From assembly GCF_001039005.1 (NCBI RefSeq), contig NZ_LDWR01000016.1, positions 1-64,000 of the forward strand: a DNA stretch of 64,000 nt. Direction: 5' to 3'. The position numbers were made by a program, and so were the translations under genes. Origin of the DNA: Burkholderia cepacia. GTDB taxonomy: Bacteria; Pseudomonadota; Gammaproteobacteria; Burkholderiales; Burkholderiaceae. The notes under the pieces are model-generated. The model ran no database searches and was not told the origin of the DNA. It was given only the letters and a program-made list of their open reading frames with translations. Shown piece by piece: positions 36,795-51,743 of the stretch (its first letter is position 1; the number at the start of each line of letters is the position of its first letter).

Positions 36795-37373
36795 TTAATC
36801 CTTGCGTTTCCACTGTCCGAACGACACCGGCTGGTGCGCGTCGGCGCGCGTGACGGTGACGTGGTCGGGCTTGTCGTCGAGCGGATACGAGACGGTGACG
36901 ATCTGGTTCGAAAATTCCCAGCCGTGCGTGCGCGGGTCGTAGCGGAACGTCACGTAGTCGGTCCAGTGCTGCCCGCACGCGACGAAGTTCTGCACGGTGA
37001 AATAGCGGCCTTTCACCGAGAGGCCGTTGTCGGCGGCGTATTCGGGATCGAACGGGTCGCACTGGCCGCCGTCGTTCGCGCGCAGGACGACCTCGTCGTT
37101 GCGCGCGGTGAGCCGGAATGCGTGATCGGGTTGCTCCTCGAAGATCAGCAGCGGGCGCGGCGACGGCTGCTCGCGCGTATCGATCGCGCGATGCACGACG
37201 ACCAGAAAGCTGTGCCGGCCGTTGCCGAGATCCGGCCCGGCTTGCGCGAGCAGCGGCCGGTAGTCGGGCGGCAGTTGCGCGGCGATCGACTTCGGCAGCT
37301 CGCCGGCGCGGGCGCCGGCAGGCAGCGCCGCGAGCAGCGGGAGCAGCAGGAGGGACAGGCGGAGGACGCGCAT
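36795..37373 (-). CDS. Exported hypothetical protein
   Basis: A 192-residue protein with a signal peptide (MRVLRLSLLLLPLLAALPAGARA). The mature part holds the motifs GNGRHSFLVVVH, RPLLIFEEQ, NDGGQCDPFDPEYAADNGLSVKG and NFVACGQHWTDYVTFRYD. The two cysteines could form a disulfide in the periplasm. I do not recognise a named domain; the repeated strand pattern suggests a beta-propeller fragment or jelly-roll. The start at 37373 gives a clean signal sequence. It stands in tandem with an acetyltransferase gene 47 bases upstream. Confidence 0.8.
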   Translation of the reverse strand: MRVLRLSLLLLPLLAALPAGARAGELPKSIAAQLPPDYRPLLAQAGPDLGNGRHSFLVVVHRAIDTREQPSPRPLLIFEEQPDHAFRLTARNDEVVLRANDGGQCDPFDPEYAADNGLSVKGRYFTVQNFVACGQHWTDYVTFRYDPRTHGWEFSNQIVTVSYPLDDKPDHVTVTRADAHQPVSFGQWKRKD

Positions 37374-37420
37374 GGCGGGGTGTCGGGTCGAAAGGAGGAA
37401 GGGCATGCCGGCCGCGCGGG

Positions 37421-38037: not shown

Positions 38038-38676
38038 ATGACTGCATCGGCTGCCGTACTCGCCATCCTGGCCGCGCTGTGGCTCGGCGCGATGATTCCG
38101 GGCCCGAGTTTCGTGCTGGTTGCCCGCAATTCGATCGGACTGTCGCGCCGCGACGGCCTTGCCACCGCGCTCGGCATGGGCCTGGGCGGCATCGTGTTCG
38201 GCGGCGTCGCGCTGGCCGGGCTCTATACGCTGCTGCAGGCCGTCGAATGGCTGTATGTGGGCCTCAAGGTGGCGGGCGGCGCGTACCTGATCTATATGGC
38301 GTCGAAGATCTGGCGCGGCGCCGACCGGCCGATCGCGATGGACGATCCGCAGGCGATGGCCGCCGGCAGCGCGCGCAAGTCGTTCTGGACGGGCCTCACG
38401 ACCCAGCTCAGCAACCCGAAGACGGCAATCTGGTACGGCAGCATCTTCGCGGCGCTGCTCCCGCAGCATCCGCCGCTGTGGTGCTACCTCGCGCTGCCGC
38501 CGCTCGTGTTCGGCGTCGAATTCGGCTGGTACACGATCGTCGCGCTGTGCTTTTCCACCCGCCGGCCGCGCGAGCTGTACCTGCGCGCGAAGAAGTGGGT
38601 TGACCGCATCGCGGCTGGCGCGATCACGCTGCTCGGGCTGCGGCTGATCCTGAACGCGCCGAAAGCGGGGATCTGA
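38038..38676 (+). CDS. LysE family translocator
   Basis: A 212-residue exporter with five or six transmembrane segments. The stretch GAMIPGPSFVLVARNSIGLSRRDG is the conserved first-helix motif of LysE/RhtB amino-acid exporters, and the second conserved stretch is TQLSNPKTAIWYGSIF. AAGGAG lies seven bases before the start. The gene is monocistronic. It likely exports an amino acid or homoserine-type compound; the exact substrate cannot be inferred. Confidence 0.92.
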   Translation: MTASAAVLAILAALWLGAMIPGPSFVLVARNSIGLSRRDGLATALGMGLGGIVFGGVALAGLYTLLQAVEWLYVGLKVAGGAYLIYMASKIWRGADRPIAMDDPQAMAAGSARKSFWTGLTTQLSNPKTAIWYGSIFAALLPQHPPLWCYLALPPLVFGVEFGWYTIVALCFSTRRPRELYLRAKKWVDRIAAGAITLLGLRLILNAPKAGI

Positions 38677-39037: not shown

Positions 39038-39802
39038 ATGGTGCACGCTTCCCCGCGCCCGGCACTGACCGGCCCGACGCTCGTCCGGCTGCTCGCGCGC
39101 CTGGCCGACGCCGATGTCGCGGAATCCCGGCAAACGCTGTCCGACCGGCTGAGCCAGTGGCTCGGCTGGACCGACGCGATCACGCTGTCGTCCGCGCTGG
39201 GTGCGAGCCCGCCCGGCGTCGCGGCCGGCGTGCGCGGCTACGACGCGGAGCGCGACTTCGCGCGCGTGCGCCACGACCTCGCGCAGGCGATCGCGGCCAC
39301 CAACCGGCCGCGTACGCGGCGCCGGCCCGGCGACCTGCCGCCGCCGGCTGCCGATACGGCCGATTTCGCGGACTTCCGCCAGCGTTATCTGTCCCTGCAG
39401 CAGGACATGGAAACGGCGATCGGCCAGTTGCGCGGCCGCTTGCGGGGCGCGCTCGCCGCGCGCTCGTCCGGGATGGCGCGGCTCGCGACGCTCGACGCGA
39501 TCATGGAGCGCGTGCTCGGCGCGCGCGAGCGCAGCCTGCTGTCGGCCGTGCCCGCGCTGCTCGGCACGCGTTTCGGGCGGCTGCGCGACGCGGAGCGGCA
39601 GGCGCTGGCCGATGCCGAATCCGCTGCTGCCGTCGACCCCACCGATGACGGCGCGGTTGCCGACGGCGCGACCGTCAAGGCGCTCGTGCCCGGCGCATGG
39701 CTCGACACGTTTCGAGACGAGATGCAAGGCATCCTGCTTGCCGAACTCGAAGTCCGGTTTCAAACGGTAGACGGGCTGCTCGCGGCCCTTCGCACCTGCT
39801 AA
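39038..39802 (+). CDS. DUF3348 domain-containing protein
   Basis: A 254-residue soluble, mostly helical protein with no signal peptide. The N-terminal half (LTGPTLVRLLARLADADVAESRQTLSDRLSQWLGW) and the C-terminal PGAWLDTFRDEMQGILLAELEVRFQTVDGLLAAL are the conserved blocks of DUF3348. It heads a four-gene operon with DUF802, an OmpA-family protein and DUF2894, with an 10-base gap to the next gene. Function is unknown; being cytoplasmic, it could be an effector or a rotor/stator partner of the membrane complex encoded downstream. Confidence 0.87.
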   Translation: MVHASPRPALTGPTLVRLLARLADADVAESRQTLSDRLSQWLGWTDAITLSSALGASPPGVAAGVRGYDAERDFARVRHDLAQAIAATNRPRTRRRPGDLPPPAADTADFADFRQRYLSLQQDMETAIGQLRGRLRGALAARSSGMARLATLDAIMERVLGARERSLLSAVPALLGTRFGRLRDAERQALADAESAAAVDPTDDGAVADGATVKALVPGAWLDTFRDEMQGILLAELEVRFQTVDGLLAALRTC

Positions 39803-39812
39803 TCAACACGCT

Positions 39813-42800
39813 ATGTCCAGAATTCGCATTGATCTCGTTGTCTTCGTCGCCGGTTTGCTCGCAGTGTGCTGGATCGGTGTCGGTTACGTCGCGTCGAACC
39901 CGCTGGCGTCGGCCGTCACGCTGCTGATCGGCGCGTGCTACGTCGCCGGCGCGTGGGAACTGCTGCGCTACCGGCAGGCGACTGCCACGCTGTCGCGTGC
40001 GGTCGCCGGCCTGACCGAGCCGCCCGCGAAGCTCGACACGTGGCTCGACACGCTGCACCCGGGCCTGCGCGGCGCCGTGCGCGCGCGTGTCGAAGGCGCG
40101 CGCGTCGCGCTGCCGGGCCCGTCGCTCACGCCTTACCTCGTCGGCCTGCTCGTGCTGCTCGGCATGCTCGGCACGCTGCTCGGGATGGTCGTGACGCTGA
40201 AGGGCACGGGCGCCGCGCTCGAAAGCGCGACCGATCTCGACGCGATCCGCGCATCGCTGATCGCGCCGGTGAAGGGCCTCGGGTTCGCGTTCGGCACGTC
40301 GATCGCGGGTGTCGCGACGTCCGCGATGCTCGGGCTGCTGTCCGCGCTCGTGCGCCGTGAGCGGATCGACGCGGCACAGCAGCTCGACGCGAAGATCGCG
40401 ACGACGTTGCGCGTGCATTCGTCCGCGCACCAGCGCGACGAATCGTTCCGGCTGCTGCAGCGCCAGGCCGACGTGATGCCGGCGCTGGTCGACCGGCTGC
40501 AGACGATGATGACGACGCTCGAGGCGCGCAGCGTCGCGCTGCACGATCGCCAGCTCGACAGCCAGCAGGCGTTTTTCGACCGGACCGAGCGTGCGTACGC
40601 GGGCCTTGCGTCGAACGTCGGCGACGCGCTGAAGGAAAGCGCCGCCGAAAGCGCGCGCGTGGCCGGTGCCGCGCTGCAGCCGGTCGTCGCGGCGACGATG
40701 ACGGGGCTCGCGCACGAGATGGCCGCGCTGCGCGACACCGTGACGGGCGCCGTGCAGCGTCAGCTCGACGGGCTGACGGACGGCTTCGAGAAGACCACCG
40801 GCAACGTGACGGCCGTGTGGAACCGCGCGCTCGACGAACAGCGCCGCGCCGGCGACGCCGTTGCGCAGCAGCTGCAGACGACGCTCGGCCAGTTCACCGA
40901 CACGTTCGCGCAGCGTTCGACGGACCTGCTCGATGGCGTCGCGACCCGCCTCGAATCGACCGAAGGCCGCCTGTCGGACGCATGGCGCGATGCGCTGTCG
41001 CGCCAGGAGCAGGTCGGCGAGACGCTGGCCGGCCAGCATGCGCGCGCGTTGGGCGAGGCTGCCGCGACGTTCGAGCGACATTCGGGCGCGGCGCTTGCCG
41101 CGATGCGCGAGTCGCACGCGGGGCTGCAGACCGAACTGGCTGTGCGCGACGAACAGCGCCTCACGGCGTGGAACGATTCGCTGGCCGCGATGGCCACGAA
41201 GCTCGGCGACGAATGGCAGCGTGCGGGCGTGCACAGCGCCGGCCGCCAGCAGGAAATCTGCGACGCACTCGCGCAAACGACGCGCGAACTCACCACGCAG
41301 GCAACGACCTTCGAACAACGCTCGAACGACCTGCTGTCGACGATCCGCGATTCGCACACGGGCCTGCAAACGCAACTCGCCGCACGCGACGAAGAACGCC
41401 TGTCGGCATGGAACGATTCGCTGGCCGCGATGGCTACGAAGCTCGGCGACGAATGGCAACGCGCGGGCGTGCACAGCGCCGGCCGTCAGCAGGAAATCTG
41501 CGACGCACTCGCACAAACGACGCGCGAACTCACCACGCAGGCAGCGACCTTCGAGCAACGCTCGAACGACCTGCTGGCGACGATCCGCGATTCGCACACG
41601 GGCCTGCAAACGCAACTCGCCGCGCGCGACGAAGAACGCCTGTCCGCGTGGAACGATTCTCTGGCCGCGATGGCGACGAAGCTCGGCGACGAATGGCAGC
41701 GTGCGGGCGTGCACAGCGCAGGCCGTCAGCAGGAAATCTGCGACGCACTCGCGCAAACGACACGCGATCTCACCACGCAGGCAACGACCTTCGAACAACG
41801 CTCGAACGATCTGCTGTCGACGATCCGCGATTCGCATACGGGCCTGCAAACGCAACTCGCCGCACGCGACGAAGAACGTCTGTCGACATGGAACGCCTCG
41901 CTGGCCGCGATGGCCACGAAGCTCGGCGACGAATGGCAGCGTGCTGGCGTGCACAGCGCCGGCCGTCAGCAGGAAATCTGCGACGCACTTGCGCAAACGA
42001 CACGCGATCTCACCACGCAGGCAACGACCTTCGAACAACGCTCGAACGATCTGCTGACGACGATCCGCGATTCGCACACGGGCCTGCAGACGCAACTCGC
42101 CGCGCGCGACGAACAGCGCCTGTCCGCGTGGAACGATTCGCTCGCCGCGATGGCGGCCGCGCTGCGCGACGAATGGGCACAGACGAGCGCACAGGCCGCG
42201 ACGCGCCAGCAGGACATCTGCGACACGCTGGCCCGCACCGCGAACGACATCACCGCGCAGGCGCAGGTGCATGCGAGCGACACGATCAACGAGATCGCGC
42301 GCCTCGTGCAGGCCGCGTCGGAGGCGCCGAAGGCCGCGGCCGACGTCGTTGCCGAGTTGCGCCAGCGCCTGTCCGACAGCATGGTGCGCGATACCGCGAC
42401 GCTCGAGGAGCGCAGCCGCCTGCTCGCGACGCTCGAAACGCTGCTCGGCGCGGTCAATCACGCGTCGACCGAACAGCGCACCGCGATCGATGCGCTCGTC
42501 AGCACGTCGGCCGACCTGCTCGATCGTGTCGGCGCGCGCTTCAACGACACCGTCGATGCCGAAACGCGCAAGCTCGATTCGGTGGCCGCGCAGGTCACCG
42601 CGGGCGCCGTCGAGGTCGCGAGCCTCGGCGATGCGTTCGGGATGGCCGTGCAGGTGTTCGGCGAATCGAACGACAAGCTGTTGAACCATCTGCAGCGCAT
42701 CGAGGCCGCGCTCGAGAAATCGCTCGCGCGCAGCGACGAGCAGCTCGAGTACTACGTCGCGCAGGCGCGCGAGGTGATCGACCTGAGCATGATGTCGCAG

Positions 42801-42860
42801 AAGCAGATCGTCGAGGATCTGCAGCAGCTCGCCGGCCGGCGGGCGCCCGTCGGAGCGTAA
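39813..42860 (+). CDS. DUF802 protein: MotA/ZorA-like membrane subunit with long tail
   Basis: A 1015-residue protein. Four hydrophobic segments (about 7-25, 33-50, 106-127 and 157-180) include GMLGTLLGMVVTL and AFGTSIAGVATSAMLGL, which match helices 3 and 4 of the MotA/ExbB/TolQ proton-channel fold. From residue 200 to 960 follows a very long helical, Gln/Ala/Thr-rich tail, partly built of 80-residue tandem repeats. That layout is the one of ZorA in Zorya anti-phage systems. The neighbouring OmpA protein supplies a MotB-like partner. The family name DUF802 reflects the tail; the motor role is inference from topology and operon. Confidence 0.85.
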   Translation: MSRIRIDLVVFVAGLLAVCWIGVGYVASNPLASAVTLLIGACYVAGAWELLRYRQATATLSRAVAGLTEPPAKLDTWLDTLHPGLRGAVRARVEGARVALPGPSLTPYLVGLLVLLGMLGTLLGMVVTLKGTGAALESATDLDAIRASLIAPVKGLGFAFGTSIAGVATSAMLGLLSALVRRERIDAAQQLDAKIATTLRVHSSAHQRDESFRLLQRQADVMPALVDRLQTMMTTLEARSVALHDRQLDSQQAFFDRTERAYAGLASNVGDALKESAAESARVAGAALQPVVAATMTGLAHEMAALRDTVTGAVQRQLDGLTDGFEKTTGNVTAVWNRALDEQRRAGDAVAQQLQTTLGQFTDTFAQRSTDLLDGVATRLESTEGRLSDAWRDALSRQEQVGETLAGQHARALGEAAATFERHSGAALAAMRESHAGLQTELAVRDEQRLTAWNDSLAAMATKLGDEWQRAGVHSAGRQQEICDALAQTTRELTTQATTFEQRSNDLLSTIRDSHTGLQTQLAARDEERLSAWNDSLAAMATKLGDEWQRAGVHSAGRQQEICDALAQTTRELTTQAATFEQRSNDLLATIRDSHTGLQTQLAARDEERLSAWNDSLAAMATKLGDEWQRAGVHSAGRQQEICDALAQTTRDLTTQATTFEQRSNDLLSTIRDSHTGLQTQLAARDEERLSTWNASLAAMATKLGDEWQRAGVHSAGRQQEICDALAQTTRDLTTQATTFEQRSNDLLTTIRDSHTGLQTQLAARDEQRLSAWNDSLAAMAAALRDEWAQTSAQAATRQQDICDTLARTANDITAQAQVHASDTINEIARLVQAASEAPKAAADVVAELRQRLSDSMVRDTATLEERSRLLATLETLLGAVNHASTEQRTAIDALVSTSADLLDRVGARFNDTVDAETRKLDSVAAQVTAGAVEVASLGDAFGMAVQVFGESNDKLLNHLQRIEAALEKSLARSDEQLEYYVAQAREVIDLSMMSQKQIVEDLQQLAGRRAPVGA
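41161..42120 (+). repeat. Four 240-bp tandem repeats inside the DUF802 gene
   Basis: Near-identical units begin at 41161, 41401, 41641 and 41881; a fifth partial unit starts at 42121 and decays after about 60 bases. Each unit is 80 codons, so copy-number changes keep the frame. Units encode AWNDSLAAMATKLGDEWQ, then GVHSAGRQQEICDALAQ and TTFEQRSNDLL blocks, predicted coiled coil. Differences are few, pointing to recent duplication or gene conversion. Confidence 0.9.
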
Positions 42861-42863
42861 CGC

Positions 42864-43508
42864 ATGCACGACGAAATCGACGGCGGCGCGCCATCCGCGC
42901 CGGTGTGGCCCGCGTTCGCCGACCTGATGTCGGTGCTGCTCGGCGCGTTCGTGCTGATCCTCGTCGGCGTGATCGGCATGCAGCTTCAGCTCACGTCGAA
43001 GCTCGAGGAAGCCGTGCGCGCGCGCCAGCAGGAAGCGCAGCAGCGCAAGTCGCTCGAACAGGCGCTCGCCGGGCCGCTCGCGGCCGGCCGCGTGACGCTC
43101 ATCAACGGCCGCATCGGCATCAGCGGCAACGTGTTGTTCGCGCTGAACTCCGACCAGTTGCAGCCCGCGGGCCGCGACTTGCTGAAGACGCTGGCCGGGC
43201 CGCTGGCCGCCTACCTGAAGACGCGCGACGAGATCCTGATGATCAGTGGTTTCGCTGACGACCAGCAGGTGCATGCCGGCAACCGCCAGTTCGCGGACAA
43301 CTGGGAACTGTCGGCCAAGCGCGCGCTGACCGTCACGCGTGCGCTGATCGATGCCGGCGTGCCGGCGCCGTCGGTGTTCGCCGCCGCGTTCGGCTCCGAA
43401 CAGCCGGTCAGCTCGAATGCGGACGATGAAGGCCGCGCGAAGAACCGCCGCGTGGAGATCGCGCCGGTGCCGCGCAAGAGCGCATCGAACGGAGGAAAGG
43501 CGCAGTGA
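42864..43508 (+). CDS. OmpA family protein, MotB/ZorB-like
   Basis: A 214-residue protein with one N-terminal transmembrane helix (about 16-40). Asp20 in PAFADLMSVLL stands where MotB has its proton-binding Asp32. A short coiled linker (40-70) is followed by an OmpA-type peptidoglycan-binding domain (about 80-205), with NWELSAKRALTVTRALIDAGV and the final KNRRVEI. This is the stator partner expected for the MotA/ZorA-like DUF802 protein, whose gene ends four bases upstream. Anchoring to the cell wall through the OmpA domain is known for MotB and ZorB. Confidence 0.9.
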   Translation: MHDEIDGGAPSAPVWPAFADLMSVLLGAFVLILVGVIGMQLQLTSKLEEAVRARQQEAQQRKSLEQALAGPLAAGRVTLINGRIGISGNVLFALNSDQLQPAGRDLLKTLAGPLAAYLKTRDEILMISGFADDQQVHAGNRQFADNWELSAKRALTVTRALIDAGVPAPSVFAAAFGSEQPVSSNADDEGRAKNRRVEIAPVPRKSASNGGKAQ

Positions 43509-44122
43509 CGGGCGACGCGACGCACGCCCGCGCGACGCTCGACGCATGGCGCGAGCAGGGCGCGGATCGGCTCGATCCCGTGCGCTTTCACCGGATCGAC
43601 GCACTCGAACGGCGCGCGGCCGCACTCGATGGCGACGCGCGCGGGTTGCTCGACGCGCGGCTGGCGACGCTGATCGAAGGTTTTGCGGCGGTCGTCGCGC
43701 GGGCCGATGAAGCAACGGAAGTGAGCAAGGCGGCGGAAGCCGCGGCAGATGCGCCGCCGCGTGGCGCGCTTGCCGGGCTCGTCGATCGGCTCGCGCGTGA
43801 TGCGCAGGCCGACCGGCGCGGGCTCGATCCCGAACTGGTCGACTACTTCCACACGATGTGGTCGAAAGTTCGCACGGAAAAGCAGTATCGCCAGTCGCTC
43901 GACCAGGTGCCGCGCAACGCGGGGCCGCTCAATTCGAACAGCCTCGTGCATCGGTCGCTGGCGACGATGCGCGAGCTGTCGCCGGCCTATCTGCAGCAAT
44001 TCCTGTCGTACGTCGATGCGCTCGCGTGGCTCGAGGATCTTGCCGGCGGCGGCGCGCAGCCCGAGAAGGAAGCGCCGCGCGCGAAGGCGGTGAAGAAGGG
44101 CACGCGGAGCAAGAGCCGGTAG
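43505..44122 (+). CDS. DUF2894 domain-containing protein
   Basis: A 205-residue soluble protein starting at a GTG that overlaps the OmpA gene stop (GTGA), so translation is coupled. The conserved block is LDPELVDYFHTMWSKVRTEKQYRQSLDQVPRNAGPLNSNSL region (about 112-150), followed by LVHRSLATMRELSPAYLQQFLSYVDAL. The C-terminus is rich in Lys/Arg (KGTRSKSR), possibly for nucleic-acid or membrane contact. It is always seen, as far as I recall, with DUF3348/DUF802 genes in Burkholderiales. Function unknown; no nuclease or helicase motif is visible. Confidence 0.85.
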   Translation: MTGDATHARATLDAWREQGADRLDPVRFHRIDALERRAAALDGDARGLLDARLATLIEGFAAVVARADEATEVSKAAEAAADAPPRGALAGLVDRLARDAQADRRGLDPELVDYFHTMWSKVRTEKQYRQSLDQVPRNAGPLNSNSLVHRSLATMRELSPAYLQQFLSYVDALAWLEDLAGGGAQPEKEAPRAKAVKKGTRSKSR

Positions 44123-44153: not shown

Positions 44154-44657
44154 TTACATCGACACACTGCCCGACGTCGCTGCGCTTTGATATCGGGCCG
44201 CGCTGATGAATTTCGAAAATCGCTCGCACCAGATCACGACCGTCGTGTATTGCGCGGGATTCACGTCGTCGGGAAGCGGCACGACGAAATTGCCGAAGGT
44301 CGTCAGGTCGCCCACGCGCGCGGCACGCGCCTTGATCGCGAGGAACGACGCTCGCGTGTCGACGAATTCCGGAACGAGATAGATCTTGTAGTCGGGCCCT
44401 GGCGCGATGTCGCCTTCGAAGGCGATCGACGAATCGGTGATCGTCAGCTTGCCGTTGGCCCAGTGCAGCGGATCGCTTCCCGGCAGGTCGCGTTCGAAGC
44501 GGCCGGTATGTCGGGTGTTTTCGGCGGCCACTTGCAGTTCGATGGCGCTTGCACCTTCCGATGCCGTCAGGATCGGGAGCACGTAGATGCCCGCTGCGAA
44601 TGCAACGAGACCCGTTGCGAGATGCGACGCGATCAGTATCCAGATTCTGCTTTTCAT
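44154..44657 (-). CDS. DM13 domain-containing protein
   Basis: A 167-residue protein with an N-terminal membrane anchor or signal (IWILIASHLATGLVAFAAGIYVLPIL, about 5-30). The DM13 domain (about 50-150) contains GRFERDLPGSDPLHWANGKLTI, GPDYKIYLVPEF and VVIWCERFS with its single conserved Cys. DM13 domains are thought to serve in electron transfer or redox sensing at the cell surface. The gene is divergent from a DUF4148 gene and convergent with the DUF2894 operon. Confidence 0.85.
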   Translation of the reverse strand: MKSRIWILIASHLATGLVAFAAGIYVLPILTASEGASAIELQVAAENTRHTGRFERDLPGSDPLHWANGKLTITDSSIAFEGDIAPGPDYKIYLVPEFVDTRASFLAIKARAARVGDLTTFGNFVVPLPDDVNPAQYTTVVIWCERFSKFISAARYQSAATSGSVSM

Positions 44658-44871
44658 ATCGGACCCTTTGAACGAGAACAGAGGGTGGCGCGTGGCCACC
44701 ACACTGTAGTCGCGCGAGCCGGCGAAATCTGACAGTCGGTCGACATTCACGTGCGTATGTCGTTCGCGTCGGACACGACGTCGAATAAATTTCGTCGACG
44801 CGTGTCATCTTTGCGCTCGCGGGTCGACTCACTCTCCATCGACAACGTCGTCGATGCTCAGGAGAGATCAG

Positions 44872-45177
44872 ATGAACAAGCTTGCTCTGTATGTTCTTGC
44901 GACGGTTGCCGCGACCGCTTCCGTTTCCGCATGGGCCGCGCCGCAGTCCACCGTGACGCGCGCGGAGGTCACGGCCGAACTGGCCGCACTGCACGCGGCC
45001 GGCTACCGTCAGACGGGTGAAGATCCGCACTATCCGGCGCGACTGGCGGAAGCGCTGACGAAGATCGGCTCGACCGGTACGTCGACCGCCGATACGAGCG
45101 GATACGGGACGATGTCGCCGACCGCGAGCGAATCGGGCTCGATTACCCGCGACAATCCGATCTATCGCGGACGATGA
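44872..45177 (+). CDS. DUF4148 domain-containing protein
   Basis: A 101-residue exported protein with a signal peptide (MNKLALYVLATVAATASVSAWA-AP). The mature N-terminus TVTRAEVTAELAALHAAGYRQTGEDPHYPARLAEAL is the DUF4148 core, a small periplasmic domain greatly expanded in Burkholderia; the rest is Thr/Ser/Gly-rich. AGGAGAG precedes the start by seven bases. Function unknown. Small periplasmic DUF4148 genes often respond to envelope stress, but nothing here shows that directly. Confidence 0.9.
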   Translation: MNKLALYVLATVAATASVSAWAAPQSTVTRAEVTAELAALHAAGYRQTGEDPHYPARLAEALTKIGSTGTSTADTSGYGTMSPTASESGSITRDNPIYRGR

Positions 45178-45256: not shown

Positions 45257-45829
45257 TCAGTGCGGCGGCTCGCCTTCGGTTATCGCCGCGCCGAGCGCCT
45301 GCAATGCTTCGGCCAGCATCGACGCGAACGGCGGATGCGCGGCGATGCCCGCGGCGTCGAGCTGACTCCCGAGGATCGGCAGCGTGATCGACGCGCGCTC
45401 GATGATGCGGGCCGACATCACCGACAGTGTTTCCCGCAGCGCCGCGTCCGCATGCGTTGCGCGCGGCGATGCATTCAGCACCGCGACCGGCTTGTGGACG
45501 ATGGCTTCGCACCCCACGACCCAGTCCAGCGCGTTCTTCATCACGCCGGTTACGCCGTGCGCGTATTCCGGGCTCGCGATCAGCACGCCGTCCGCCGCGT
45601 TCAGGCGATCGATCAGGTCGCGCACGGCGGCGGGCGACGGAAATTCGGCATCGGGATTGAACAGCGGGAATTCGCCGAGGCGATCGAAACGCGTGATGCG
45701 CATGCCGCGCGGCGCGACGTGCGCGGCAGCATCGAGCAGCGCGGCGTTGTACGACAGCGACCGGAGGCTGCCGCACAGGGCGACGATGTTGATGCGGCGG
45801 TCGGCGTCGGTTCGGAATTCGGTGGTCAT
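45257..45829 (-). CDS. NADPH-dependent FMN reductase family protein
   Basis: A 190-residue flavodoxin-like reductase. The FMN phosphate loop is CGSLRSLSYNAALLDA (19-34), and the conserved SPEYAHGVTGVMKNALDWV (about 86-104) contacts the flavin and subunit partner. Members reduce FMN, quinones, chromate or azo compounds with NADPH. It is followed in tandem on the same strand by no close gene; the gene upstream at 45926 ends 96 bases away. Confidence 0.92.
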   Translation of the reverse strand: MTTEFRTDADRRINIVALCGSLRSLSYNAALLDAAAHVAPRGMRITRFDRLGEFPLFNPDAEFPSPAAVRDLIDRLNAADGVLIASPEYAHGVTGVMKNALDWVVGCEAIVHKPVAVLNASPRATHADAALRETLSVMSARIIERASITLPILGSQLDAAGIAAHPPFASMLAEALQALGAAITEGEPPH

Positions 45830-45925: not shown

Positions 45926-46561
45926 CTACGTACGCGACGCGGTCCGTGCTGCCTCGTTGAAAATGGTTGCTGACTCGCGTCGAGCCGGTTCGGCGTCGCT
46001 CATCCCGACCGCTCGTGCGAATGCGCCGATTTCCCATCCGTTGCCGAGCAACAGGCGCCGCGTATGCAGCGCGCCGTGTACGTCGTCGGCGACGGTTTCG
46101 CCGAGATAGCGCAGCGCGCGGCCCTCGATATCGACGAAGCCGTGCCGGTAATCGTGCGCGAGCGTGGTCCACAGCTGCGCGGCGCCGACCGACTGGCGCG
46201 CGCCGCTGATCAGGCACAGGCCTGCGTCGAGCCCCCAGCGATACAGCGTCGTCGCGAGGCCCTTGCGTTGCGACGAGCCGCGCAGCCGCGTATGCGGCGC
46301 GCGCAGGTAGCGGTCCGCGCGGCGCGGGATTTCGGGAAGGCGGTTGAACACCGTGTAGCCGGCAAGTTCGCGCGCGGCCGGATCCTCGACGTACAGGAAG
46401 TATTCGCCGTCCGCCTCGCGGTGGCGGACGATCAGGCCCGAGCGGCCGAGCGTGACGGCCGGCAGCCCGTGCAGGCGATGGCCCGGCTGATGGAGGCGTG
46501 CGTAGAGTGTGTCGAGTTCATCGTCGATGTCGTGCTGGGAATGCTGTACGTCGATGCGCAT
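45926..46561 (-). CDS. Hypothetical protein, GNAT-like (LuxI/autoinducer-type fold possible)
   Basis: A 211-residue protein, probably cytoplasmic. The middle portion (SGLIVRHREADGEYFLYVEDPAARELAGYTVFNRL, about 44-78) and the stretch RGSSQRKGLATTLYRWGLDAGLCLISG (about 94-120) follow a GNAT-like pattern: a strand pair, then R-x-x-G-L/A-T-x-L with a helix. The usual Q/R-x-x-G-x-G/A loop is recognisable as Q-R-K-G-L-A. The C-terminal part is specific. I cannot assign a substrate. It may share a transcript with the FMN reductase gene. Confidence 0.7.
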   Translation of the reverse strand: MRIDVQHSQHDIDDELDTLYARLHQPGHRLHGLPAVTLGRSGLIVRHREADGEYFLYVEDPAARELAGYTVFNRLPEIPRRADRYLRAPHTRLRGSSQRKGLATTLYRWGLDAGLCLISGARQSVGAAQLWTTLAHDYRHGFVDIEGRALRYLGETVADDVHGALHTRRLLLGNGWEIGAFARAVGMSDAEPARRESATIFNEAARTASRT

Positions 46562-49088: not shown

Positions 49089-51383
49089 TTACTTCTTGGT
49101 GCCGCCGCCCAGCAGACCGCCGAGGAGGTTCGTCACCGGCGACAGCAGGTTGGCTGCACCACCCGCGGCGGCGCCGTTCGAGCTGCCGGTCAGGCCGGCC
49201 GCCACGGTGCCGCTGCCGGCCGGTGTCGTCGCGGTGCCGGCCGCGCCGCTCGGGGTGACCGTCGCGCCGGCACCGGCGCCGCCGGCCGGCGTCGTCAGCG
49301 CGCCCGTCAGCGTGCCGACCGGGCCGCTCGTCAGCAGGCCGCCGAGGGTGCCCGTCACGTTGCCTCCCGGCGTCGTGACCGTGCCGGTGAGGCTTGCGCC
49401 GAGCGGCGTCAGCGAGTTGACGAGGTTGGTGACCGGCGCCAGCAGGCCGCCGACACCCGAACCGCCGGTGCCGCTTGTGCCGCCGGTCCCGCTGGTGCCG
49501 CCCGAACCGAGGCCGCCGAGTGCGCCCGTCACGGTACCGAGCAGGCCGGTGACCGGTGCCAGCGGGCCGCCGCCGGTGCCGCTCGTGCCGCCGGTCCCGC
49601 TGGTGCCGCTCGAACCGAGGCCGCCGAGTGCGCCGGTCAGCGAGCCGAGCAGGCCCGTGACCGGTCCGAGCGGGCCGCCGCTCGTGCCGCTGGTGCCGCC
49701 CGAACCGCTCGAGCTGCCGCCGCCGAGCCCACCCGTCAGCGTGCCGAGCAGGCCCGTGATCGGGGCGAGCGGGTTGCTGCCGCCGGTGCCGCTGCTGGAG
49801 CTGCCCGCGTTGTTGTCGTGGACGAGGCCGCCGGTGGAGGTCACCGTATTGCCGAGCTGGGCCACGACGCCGCCGAGAGCCGCGCCGAGCGGGTTGTCGG
49901 TCGCGCCGCCGACCTTCGTGCCTGCGGTTGCGAGGCCGTTGCCGAGCGTGCTCAGCAGGCCGTTGAGCGGTGTGCCGAGCAGCGTCACGCCGCCGAGCGT
50001 CTGCGTGGCGCCCGGCGTCGTGACGCCGCCGGTCAGCGTGTTCGTGATCGGGTTGATCACCTTGCCGACCTGCGTCTCGAGCTGCTGGACCGGCGAGCTG
50101 TTCAGCGCCGTGTTGAGGCCGGACGCGGTCGAGTTGACGGCGCCGCCGACGGTGTTGACGAGATCGCCGACGAGCGTCGTCACGGGCGACAGCGGCGACA
50201 GCGGGCCCGAGCCGAGGCTCTTCACCGCGTTGCCGAGGTTGTTGACCGTGCCGCCGGCGCCGGTCAGCAGGCCGGTGGTCGACGTCAGCGTCGGTCCGAG
50301 CGGGTTCGCCGACACGCCGATCGAGCCGAGGCCGGCCGCGACGCCGTTGCCGAGCGACTGCACGCCGTTGCCGAGGCTCGTGACCGCATTGCCGATGCTG
50401 GTGGCCGTCGTCGGGTTCGTGCCGGGGATCTGCACGCCGCCGATCTGCGCGCCGCCGTTCGCGACCGTCGTGCCGACTGCCGTCACGAGGTTGCCGGATT
50501 TCTGGAGGACATTGCCGAGCGGGGTGACGCCGGTACCGGAGGTGCCGGAAGTACCCGACGTGCCAGAGGTGCCCGACGTACCCGACGTGCCCGACGTGCC
50601 CGACGTACCCGACGTACCCGACGTACCCGACGTACCCGACGTACCCGAGGTGCCGGAGGTGCCCGAGGTGCCCGAGGTGCCGGAAGTACCCGAAGTACCC
50701 GAAGTGCCGGAAGTACCCGAAGTACCCGAAGTACCCGAAGTGCCCGAAGTGCCCGAAGTGCCCGAAGTGCCCGAAGTGCCCGAAGTGCCAGAGGTGCCGG
50801 AGGTACCCGACGTACCGGAAGTGCCCGAGGTGCCGGAAGTGCCCGAGGTGCCGGAAGTGCCCGAGGTACCGGAAGTGCCCGAGGTACCGGAAGTGCCCGA
50901 GGTGCCGGAGGTACCCGACGTACCGGAGGTACCCGACGTACCGGAAGTACCCGACGTACCGGAAGTGCCCGACGTACCGGAAGTGCCCGACGTGCCGGAA
51001 GTACCCGACGTACCGGAAGTACCCGACGTACCGGAAGTGCCCGACGTACCGGAAGTACCCGAGGTGCCAGACGTACCCGACGTGCCAGACGTACCCGACG
51101 TACCGGAAGTACCCGACGTGCCAGACGTGCCAGACGTGCCAGACGTGCCAGACGTACCCGACGTACCGGAAGACGTACCCGAAGTCCCCGAACTACCGCC
51201 GCCCGACGTCCCCGACGAACCGCCGCCCGACGTGCCGGAAGTCCCCGAACTGCCGCCCGTCCCCGACGTGCTCGGCTTGATCGTCGGCGGGGTCGTCGGT
51301 CCATCGACCGAGCCGCAACCATATAGTGCGAGCAGCGACGAGACGGCCATCGTTACCGTCGTCTTCTTGAAAATGTTGTACAT
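49089..51383 (-). CDS. Collagen-like (GTS)n repeat lipoprotein
   Basis: A 764-residue exported protein. The N-terminus [24 protein letters not shown] is a lipoprotein signal with Cys23. Then follow a Ser/Gly/Thr linker, 71 uninterrupted G-T-S triplets (about residues 71-283), and a long Gly/Leu/Val-rich domain of short repeats such as [12 protein letters not shown] and [13 protein letters not shown] periodicity without proline is collagen-like, as in Burkholderia Bucl proteins; the repeated Thr/Ser could be glycosylated. It is most likely a surface or outer-membrane protein. The next gene downstream on the strand is the ICMT-like gene. Confidence 0.87.
50533..51171. repeat. 71 tandem copies of a 9-bp unit (GTRCCSGAM)
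   Basis: 639 bases of strictly periodic nine-mers, read on the plus strand as GT(A/G)CC(C/G)GA(C/A/G), with a few CCA variants. On the coding strand each unit is G-T-S. Higher-order patterns such as alternating GTACCGGAA/GTGCCCGAC blocks indicate repeated duplication of larger segments. Being a multiple of three, copy-number change would alter stalk length without a frameshift. Confidence 0.95.
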
Positions 51384-51743
51384 GTTGGCCTCGACATTGG
51401 AAGTGTGTCCAAGCCTGCACTGCAAATTCCGCGCCACGACGGGTTCCGCGAAACGGTGTCGCGCTTTGTTGCGGAAATCGGGAATATCAACGCGATTTAA
51501 ACGCATTAATGATGGTTTCGCGCGGCGGGCACGCACGGTGCGCCGGTGCGTTCATGGCGATGTTCCCGTGAACCGCCGTAACGCGCGGCGCAATGTTACG
51601 TAGCGTTCGACATCGCGTCACGCGGGCGGCCGCGAACCGAGGGCCGCGTCTTTGACGAAACGCGCCGGCCCCGTGAACATGGCGCGACATCTCCCGGCCG
51701 CCGGCGCCGCCGCAACGGTCACGACCTCACACAGGACACCGAC
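51384..51743. other. Intergenic gap upstream of the repeat lipoprotein and CMD genes
   Basis: I see no gene in these 360 bases. The minus-strand promoter of the repeat lipoprotein should lie here; the AT-richer stretch at 51485-51515 (GATTTAAACGCATTAATGATG) is a candidate. The stretch upstream of 51744 carries the ACAGGACACC ribosome-binding site of the decarboxylase-like gene. Confidence 0.4.

What the first reader, a model, noticed from the sequence alone, without database searches (positions are those of the whole stretch)
39038..44122. A MotAB/ZorAB-like motor operon with two DUF partners
Four tightly packed genes: DUF3348, a 1015-residue four-helix membrane protein with MotA/ExbB-type helices 3-4 and an approximately 750-residue helical tail (DUF802), a 214-residue OmpA protein with Asp20 in the single membrane helix as in MotB, and DUF2894 (GTGA-coupled). 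Four membrane helices plus a giant tail, followed by a short TM-OmpA protein, is the design of the ZorA/ZorB ion-driven core of Zorya anti-phage systems. DUF3348 and DUF2894 would then occupy the place of the cytosolic effectors, although no nuclease or helicase motif is visible. It could instead be a conserved Burkholderiales envelope complex with a non-defence role. A motor whose function is not described is the most novel system in the window.
Basis: partly seen in the sequence, partly recalled or inferred. Interest (0 to 1): 0.82.

Follow-up and report, generated by a model that had tools for sequence, protein, structure and literature searches.

The report
Zorya type III phage-defence motor operon
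These four genes are a Zorya type III system, a membrane motor already described as a bacterial defence against phages; what is unusual is that nearly every species of the genus examined carries it and that its long motor tail varies in whole repeat units.

Summary
In detail: four tightly packed genes at 39038-44122. But it is not an undescribed motor. All four proteins match PADLOC's Zorya type III models (ZorA3 E=0, ZorB3 3e-114, DUF3348 2.6e-95, DUF2894 7.9e-83). That type was named in 2021 and one example protected E. coli from phage (PMC8565338, passages). The motor reading holds: ZorA's membrane part matches type I ZorA (8vvn, E=3.7e-4) and ZorB Asp20 is invariant in 112 of 112 sequences. 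No enzyme fold was found for DUF3348 or DUF2894.

The surprise is its biology. DUF3348 occurs in 64 of 65 genomes of the genus, one copy each, against 1 of 65 for ZorE2 and 3 of 65 for ZorC1. No defence island is evident; no phage record holds it, and the 26 plasmid records that do are 0.59 Mb or larger. Yet cassette and host trees conflict and its chromosomal address shifts. ZorA length runs from 643 to 1229 residues, mostly in repeat-unit steps that lie near whole helical turns (suggestive only).

The parts
39038..39802 (+). DUF3348 protein (ZorF in the papers, ZorG3 in PADLOC-DB 2.0), 254 aa, predicted all-helical
   Evidence: Pfam 8.9e-85; PADLOC 2.6e-95; AlphaFold2 pLDDT 77
39813..42860 (+). 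ZorA3, 1015 aa: about four membrane segments, then a long helical repeat tail (DUF802)
   Evidence: PADLOC ZorA3 E=0; DUF802 3.7e-26; profile match to type I ZorA 8vvn_C 3.7e-4 over residues 109-194
40173..40175 (+). Thr121 of ZorA3, helix 3, candidate ion-path residue
   Evidence: invariant, 112 of 112
40296..40301 (+). Thr162-Ser163 of ZorA3, helix 4, candidate ion-path residues
   Evidence: invariant, 112 of 112; aligned with a Thr-Ser of type I ZorA
41101..42154 (+). tandem array in the ZorA3 tail, 240-bp (80-residue) unit x 4.4
   Evidence: Tandem Repeats Finder; units 86-96% identical in protein
42864..43508 (+). ZorB3, 214 aa: one membrane helix and an OmpA-type peptidoglycan-binding domain
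   Evidence: PADLOC ZorB3 3e-114; OmpA 2.9e-18; profile match to type I ZorB 8vvn_B 4.1e-7
42921..42923 (+). Asp20 of ZorB3, the proposed ion-carrying residue
   Evidence: invariant, 112 of 112
43505..44122 (+). DUF2894 protein (ZorG in the papers, ZorF3 in PADLOC-DB 2.0), 205 aa, GTGA overlap with ZorB3, basic C-terminus
   Evidence: Pfam 2.8e-56; PADLOC 7.9e-83; charge; overlap

Best explanation
A complete Zorya type III anti-phage cassette. ZorA3 (probably five copies) and ZorB3 (two) form an ion-driven inner-membrane motor. ZorB3's OmpA domain engages peptidoglycan when an incoming phage disturbs the envelope; ions then pass Asp20 of ZorB3 and the Thr/Ser ring of ZorA3 helices 3-4; ZorA3 turns or rearranges, and its long helical tail (about 120 nm if straight) carries the change into the cytoplasm, where DUF3348 and DUF2894 act as adaptor and effector in place of ZorC/ZorD or ZorE. 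Shown here: gene content and order, homology to ZorA/ZorB, invariant candidate ion-path and OmpA residues. Shown by others for types I and II only: 5:2 assembly and the need for the Asp, the tail and peptidoglycan binding. Shown by others for one type III system: phage protection in E. coli. Inferred: what DUF3348 and DUF2894 do, and that this copy defends its own host.
For: All four proteins hit the type III models, and ZorA1/ZorB1 models are hit as well (8.2e-14, 1.2e-16). Profile matches to the type I structure for both subunits. Invariant Asp20, Thr121, Thr162, Ser163 (112 of 112) and OmpA residues D132, D133, R153, N194, R195, R196 (115 of 115). The four genes together in 114 of 120 loci. 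Published phage protection by a type III operon (PMC8565338, passages). Published requirements in types I and II (PMC11890865, sections 6 and 10). In B. cenocepacia K56-2 the first one or two genes of the predicted Zorya III operon changed in transcription during infection (PMC12584637, passages).
Against: Near-universal single-copy presence in the genus, no evident defence island and absence from phages and from plasmid records under 0.58 Mb are unlike most defence systems. CRISPRi knockdown of predicted defence genes in K56-2, Zorya III among the predicted systems, had no effect on phage Bcep176. No effector fold or active site was recognised. The membrane match to type I ZorA is modest (3.7e-4). 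The position I take for the peptidoglycan-contacting His of types I and II is Phe or Tyr here.
Confidence: 0.72

Rival explanations
1. A core envelope or chromosome machine of these bacteria whose main role is not phage defence; the protection seen in E. coli would be a side effect of an over-expressed motor.
For: 64 of 65 genomes of the genus, one copy each, and DUF2894 in 63 of 65, against 1 of 65 and 3 of 65 for ZorE2 and ZorC1; no evident defence island; native composition; no phage phenotype by CRISPRi with one phage.
Against: Cassette and host histories conflict: g3+g11+g24 and g13+g20 are rejected, while two host genes agree with each other. The address differs in 9 of 20 genomes of the genus. 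Patchy above genus level (11 of 25 genera; 18 of 54; 20 of 398 genomes). One type III operon protects E. coli.
Confidence: 0.18
2. A general envelope-threat responder that acts on other invaders too (conjugating plasmids, contact-dependent attackers), with phage only one trigger.
For: Genus-wide presence would suit a constant threat; an OmpA domain could sense peptidoglycan disturbance from any source (inference).
Against: No direct data. A 2026 paper, citing Hu et al. 2025, says Zorya has no effect on conjugation (PMC13367071, passages).
Confidence: 0.05
3. An ordinary flagellar or Tol/Exb-type stator, unrelated to Zorya.
For: OmpA/MotB-like domain; MotA_ExbB matched weakly by 3 of 32 ZorA3 N-termini.
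Against: Type III models far outscore others; the window's own N-terminus has no MotA_ExbB match at E 0.01; giant tail and two DUF partners.
Confidence: 0.03

Closest known systems
Zorya type III (Payne et al. 2021, PMC8565338, passages)
   Same: All four protein families, their partnership and the tight operon
   Different: Nothing that sets this locus apart; its tail carries an 80-residue unit array, a length class shared by 24 of 111 distinct relatives
Zorya type I and II ZorAB (PMC11890865, sections 6 and 10)
   Same: MotA/ExbB-like membrane part, long cytoplasmic tail, ZorB with membrane Asp and OmpA domain
   Different: No ZorC/ZorD or ZorE in the operon; ZorA length varies widely, where component size is called well conserved within types I and II
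Flagellar stator MotAB and relatives (PMC12505986, passages)
   Same: Ion-driven A/B plan and OmpA-type domain
   Different: Weak or no sequence match of the A subunit; giant tail; DUF partners

Membership tests
Zorya type III | ZorA3: MotA/ExbB-type membrane part plus long tail | tested here: met
   PADLOC E=0; 8vvn_C 3.7e-4
Zorya type III | ZorB3: membrane helix with Asp plus OmpA domain | tested here: met
   PADLOC 3e-114; Asp20 112 of 112; OmpA 2.9e-18
Zorya type III | DUF3348 and DUF2894 genes flanking the A/B pair | tested here: met
   together in 114 of 120 loci
Zorya type III | Anti-phage activity | not testable with these tools
   published for another member only
Zorya (all types) | 5:2 ZorA:ZorB assembly and ion flow | not testable with these tools
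Zorya (all types) | Peptidoglycan binding by ZorB | tested here: inconclusive
   D132, D133, R153, N194, R195, R196 invariant in 115 of 115; motif His position is Phe (112) or Tyr (3); correspondence recalled, not aligned
Zorya type I | ZorC and ZorD partners | tested here: not met
   none among the four proteins; ZorC1 model finds nothing in the window's own genome; ZorD not searched genome-wide
Zorya type II | ZorE HNH partner | tested here: not met
   none among the four; ZorE2 model finds nothing in the window's own genome
Flagellar MotAB stator | Pfam MotA_ExbB membership of the A subunit | tested here: not met
   window N-terminus no match at E 0.01; 3 of 32 relatives match, best 0.0017

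The most novel reading that the evidence does not exclude
In this genus Zorya III has become a core machine: a nearly always present, envelope-anchored rotary device whose standing job goes beyond phage defence, with a 66-154 nm drive shaft whose length changes only by whole helical turns, so that the angular phase of the pentameric rod is kept from membrane to tip. The tail would be a true torque or phase transmitter rather than a flexible tether.
Probability: 0.15. Interest if true: 0.8.

Novelty: already known. Interest (0 to 1): 0.42.

Why it matters
Types I and II have structures and (for II) a nuclease effector; for type III I found neither in the papers I could read. If its tail evolves in phase-keeping steps, nature has supplied a series of shaft lengths (ZorA of 643 to 1229 residues) with which to ask whether Zorya tails rotate, measure distance or merely tether. 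A defence system carried by almost every species of a genus, with no evident defence island, would be an unusual case of core immunity, or a hint of a second role.

Tried and rejected
1. Undescribed motor: rejected; PADLOC models and two papers name it.

3. Fixed locus: rejected. At least one of the window's landmark neighbours (LysE type at 38038, FMN reductase at 45257) lies near the cassette in 11 of 20 genomes of the genus, neither in 9. Empty-site test inconclusive: in those nine genomes LysE has a likely orthologue (64-73%) in three, away from the cassette, and FMN reductase a 69% partial match in one.

4. Strict vertical descent: not supported, but single-clade tests for the whole genus (p-AU 0.055), g10 (0.053) and G043+G017+G021 (0.084) do not reject the host grouping. 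Groups were chosen after the trees were seen. Single-gene trees of DUF3348, ZorB and DUF2894 show no supported conflict with the host genes either; ZorA shows 1 of 9 (AlaRS) and 2 of 9 (ComEC), so the conflict rests on the concatenation and on ZorA.

5. First AlaRS tree was wrong: the script took antisense frames. Redone; one search is not used. One search timed out with no output.

6. Tail periodicity: nine unit lengths fit whole turns at 3.63 residues per turn (0 of 20,000 random sets as good) and at 3.65 (2), not at 3.667 (2549), 3.6 (4180) or 3.68 (13,353). 3.63 was the best fit found beforehand on the same data. The window's own tail has a hydrophobic period of 3.65-3.66, but 25 base-form tails give 3.65 or 3.68 depending on window length. 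Unit lengths are not independent (80=51+29, 131=80+51, 149=80+69, 98=69+29); 102 was dropped as 2x51 although one of its two loci (L195) is not plainly so. With 51, 69, 80 and 87 alone the chance fraction is 5e-5 at 3.63, 0.009 at 3.65, 0.16 at 3.667. Suggestive only.

Full report
WHAT IS THERE. Four forward genes: DUF3348 (39038-39802), a 1015-residue ZorA-like protein (39813-42860), a 214-residue OmpA protein (42864-43508) and DUF2894 (43505-44122). Pfam confirms DUF3348, DUF802, OmpA and DUF2894. Composition is native: operon GC 0.699 against 0.670 for the window; GC3 0.82-0.91 against a mean of 0.846 (SD 0.075) for the called genes.

WHAT IT IS. PADLOC-DB recognises all four: ZorA3 (E=0), ZorB3 (3e-114), DUF3348 (2.6e-95), DUF2894 (7.9e-83); type I models are hit too, ZorA1 at 8.2e-14 and ZorB1 at 1.2e-16. 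NCBIfam has no passing Zorya model here: its ZorA type I model scores 17.7 bits against a cut-off of 190. Zorya type III was defined in 2021 from 6,401 loci, and an operon from Stenotrophomonas nitritireducens lowered plaquing of at least one phage in E. coli (PMC8565338, passages). [quoted passage not shown]). Both papers call DUF3348 ZorF and DUF2894 ZorG; PADLOC-DB 2.0 labels them the other way round. In the library, 'Zorya type III' occurs in 2 papers and DUF802, DUF3348 or DUF2894 in 3.

MOTOR ANATOMY. A profile of 32 ZorA3 N-termini finds two PDB sequences under E=1: type I ZorA 8vvn_C (3.7e-4, over helices 3-4) and an aquaporin (0.85); the window sequence alone reached only 0.042 with 8vvn_C. 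A ZorB3 profile finds 46 sequences at 1e-6 or better, mostly MotB/OmpA domains, among them type I ZorB 8vvn_B over profile positions 8-201 at 4.1e-7. Over 111 distinct relatives plus the window, ZorB Asp20 and ZorA Thr121, Thr162 and Ser163 are invariant (112 of 112). OmpA residues D132, D133, R153, N194, R195 and R196 are invariant in 115 of 115 rows; the position I take by motif for the peptidoglycan-contacting His of types I and II is Phe in 112 and Tyr in 3 (correspondence recalled, not aligned). In types I and II the Asp, the tail and peptidoglycan binding are needed for defence.

PARTNERS. DUF3348 is predicted all-helical (pLDDT 77, pTM 0.72) with no meaningful structural relative. DUF2894 is helical and poorly predicted; it has a conserved N-A-GPLNS-x-x-LVHR block over 59 sequences and a basic end, mean net charge +6.0 in the last 20 residues of 114 copies, range +1 to +9. 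No nuclease, helicase or nucleotide-binding family was found. That either binds nucleic acid or the tail is inference.

TAIL. ZorA length runs from 643 to 1229 over 114 copies; coefficient of variation 0.157 against 0.016 for ZorB. Of 111 distinct sequences 88 fall in seven narrow classes, drawn after seeing the data: 697-701 (22), 784-788 (20), 855 (4), 871-872 (7), 935 (7), 958-959 (4), 1015 (24); 23 lie elsewhere (counted). Relatedness alone puts neighbours in one class. A strong internal repeat is found in 87 of 114 copies, none in 27; the unit is 80 residues in 39, 87 in 32, 69 in 4, and 29, 33, 51, 98, 102, 131 or 149 in the other 12. The window's array is 240 bp x 4.4. Unit lengths lie near whole helical turns at 3.63 residues per turn; the limits of that test are under Tried and rejected. 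At 0.15 nm per residue (textbook rise, straight rod assumed) the window's rod would be about 122 nm, 66-154 nm across relatives. In types I and II component size is called well conserved within each family. I saw no report of this length series; searches.

DISTRIBUTION. In the window's genus DUF3348 is found in 64 of 65 genomes, one match each (G051 partial), and in 64 of 64 that are at least 90% complete and at most 5% contaminated. DUF2894 is found in 63 of 65; the genome without DUF3348 has it and the two without DUF2894 have DUF3348, so each of the 65 carries at least one. Controls on the same 65: ZorE2 in 1, ZorC1 in 3. Family: 207 of 299 genomes, 11 of 25 genera. A second family: 70 of 198, 18 of 54 genera. 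Phylum: 20 of 398, 19 over cut-off. Plasmid records: 26 of 72,556, smallest 588,872 bp, 19 non-mobilizable and 7 mobilizable. Phage records: no match in 50,697. Viral contigs: 87 pattern matches, none confirmed. All this is one genome per species; within-species variation was not tested.

NEIGHBOURHOOD. Near flanks of the fetched loci gave 152 proteins after dropping those over 900 aa; 150 were scanned, with 58 of the 59 other called genes of the window. PADLOC at 1e-5 gave scattered families, each in 1 to 3 proteins: mad2, mad3, mad8, AriA, RmrA, HTH_VI, HEC-02A/B, ATPase-Toprim_I-B, LmuA (best 6.8e-34, mad3). I judge these mostly look-alikes, since three window proteins are ABC ATPases; which proteins they were was not traced. 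No second full system is evident, but none was formally excluded.

HISTORY. For 29 of 30 chosen genomes (G114 lacks a ComEC match) two host genes agree: AlaRS and the faster ComEC have 0 supported conflicts, distance correlation 0.94. The concatenated cassette conflicts with 6 of 20 supported ComEC splits (correlation 0.53) and 3 of 10 AlaRS splits (0.43). Its four genes show no supported conflict with one another, with correlations of 0.81-0.86 among DUF3348, ZorA and DUF2894 and 0.50-0.64 for ZorB with the rest. Under a mixture model the cassette rejects the host groupings g3+g11+g24 (p-AU 2.5e-6) and g13+g20 (2.7e-5), but not the genus itself (0.055), g10 (0.053) or G043+G017+G021 (0.084). 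ComEC rejects one cassette grouping (2.0e-5). So the cassette either moved between genera or passed through old duplication and loss. Long branches are present.

READING. This is a known defence type. Presence in nearly all species of a genus with no evident island is unusual for defence; a discordant tree and a shifting address are unusual for housekeeping. The simplest account is a defence cassette under constant selection, kept by nearly all lineages and now and then replaced or moved. A core role beyond phage stays open: in B. cenocepacia K56-2 the first one or two genes of the predicted Zorya III operon changed in transcription on infection, while guides against predicted defence genes had no significant effect with phage Bcep176 (PMC12584637, passages).

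Noticed in passing
39038-39802 and 43505-44122: Name clash: two papers call DUF3348 ZorF and DUF2894 ZorG, PADLOC-DB 2.0 labels DUF3348 ZorG3 and DUF2894 ZorF3.
   Followed up: yes
41101-42154 and relatives L062-L198: Lineage-specific tail repeat units (80, 87, 69, 51, 131, 149 residues and others) lie near whole helical turns; the fit depends on the period assumed.
   Followed up: partly
39675-43715 (-): A 1346-residue antisense open frame covers the operon; probably a by-product of the high-GC codon pattern.
   Followed up: no
   Followed up: no
control genomes: Corynebacterium glutamicum matches the DUF2894 model over its cut-off, outside the phylum of this system.
   Followed up: no
44154-45177: A DM13-domain protein and a DUF4148 protein follow the cassette; both are recognised beside it in 2 of 20 genus loci, L072 and L074.
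   Followed up: no
window:47688-48968, 49096-51600, 45929-46561, 36798-37406: Four nearby called genes have no Pfam match at 1e-5.
   Followed up: no
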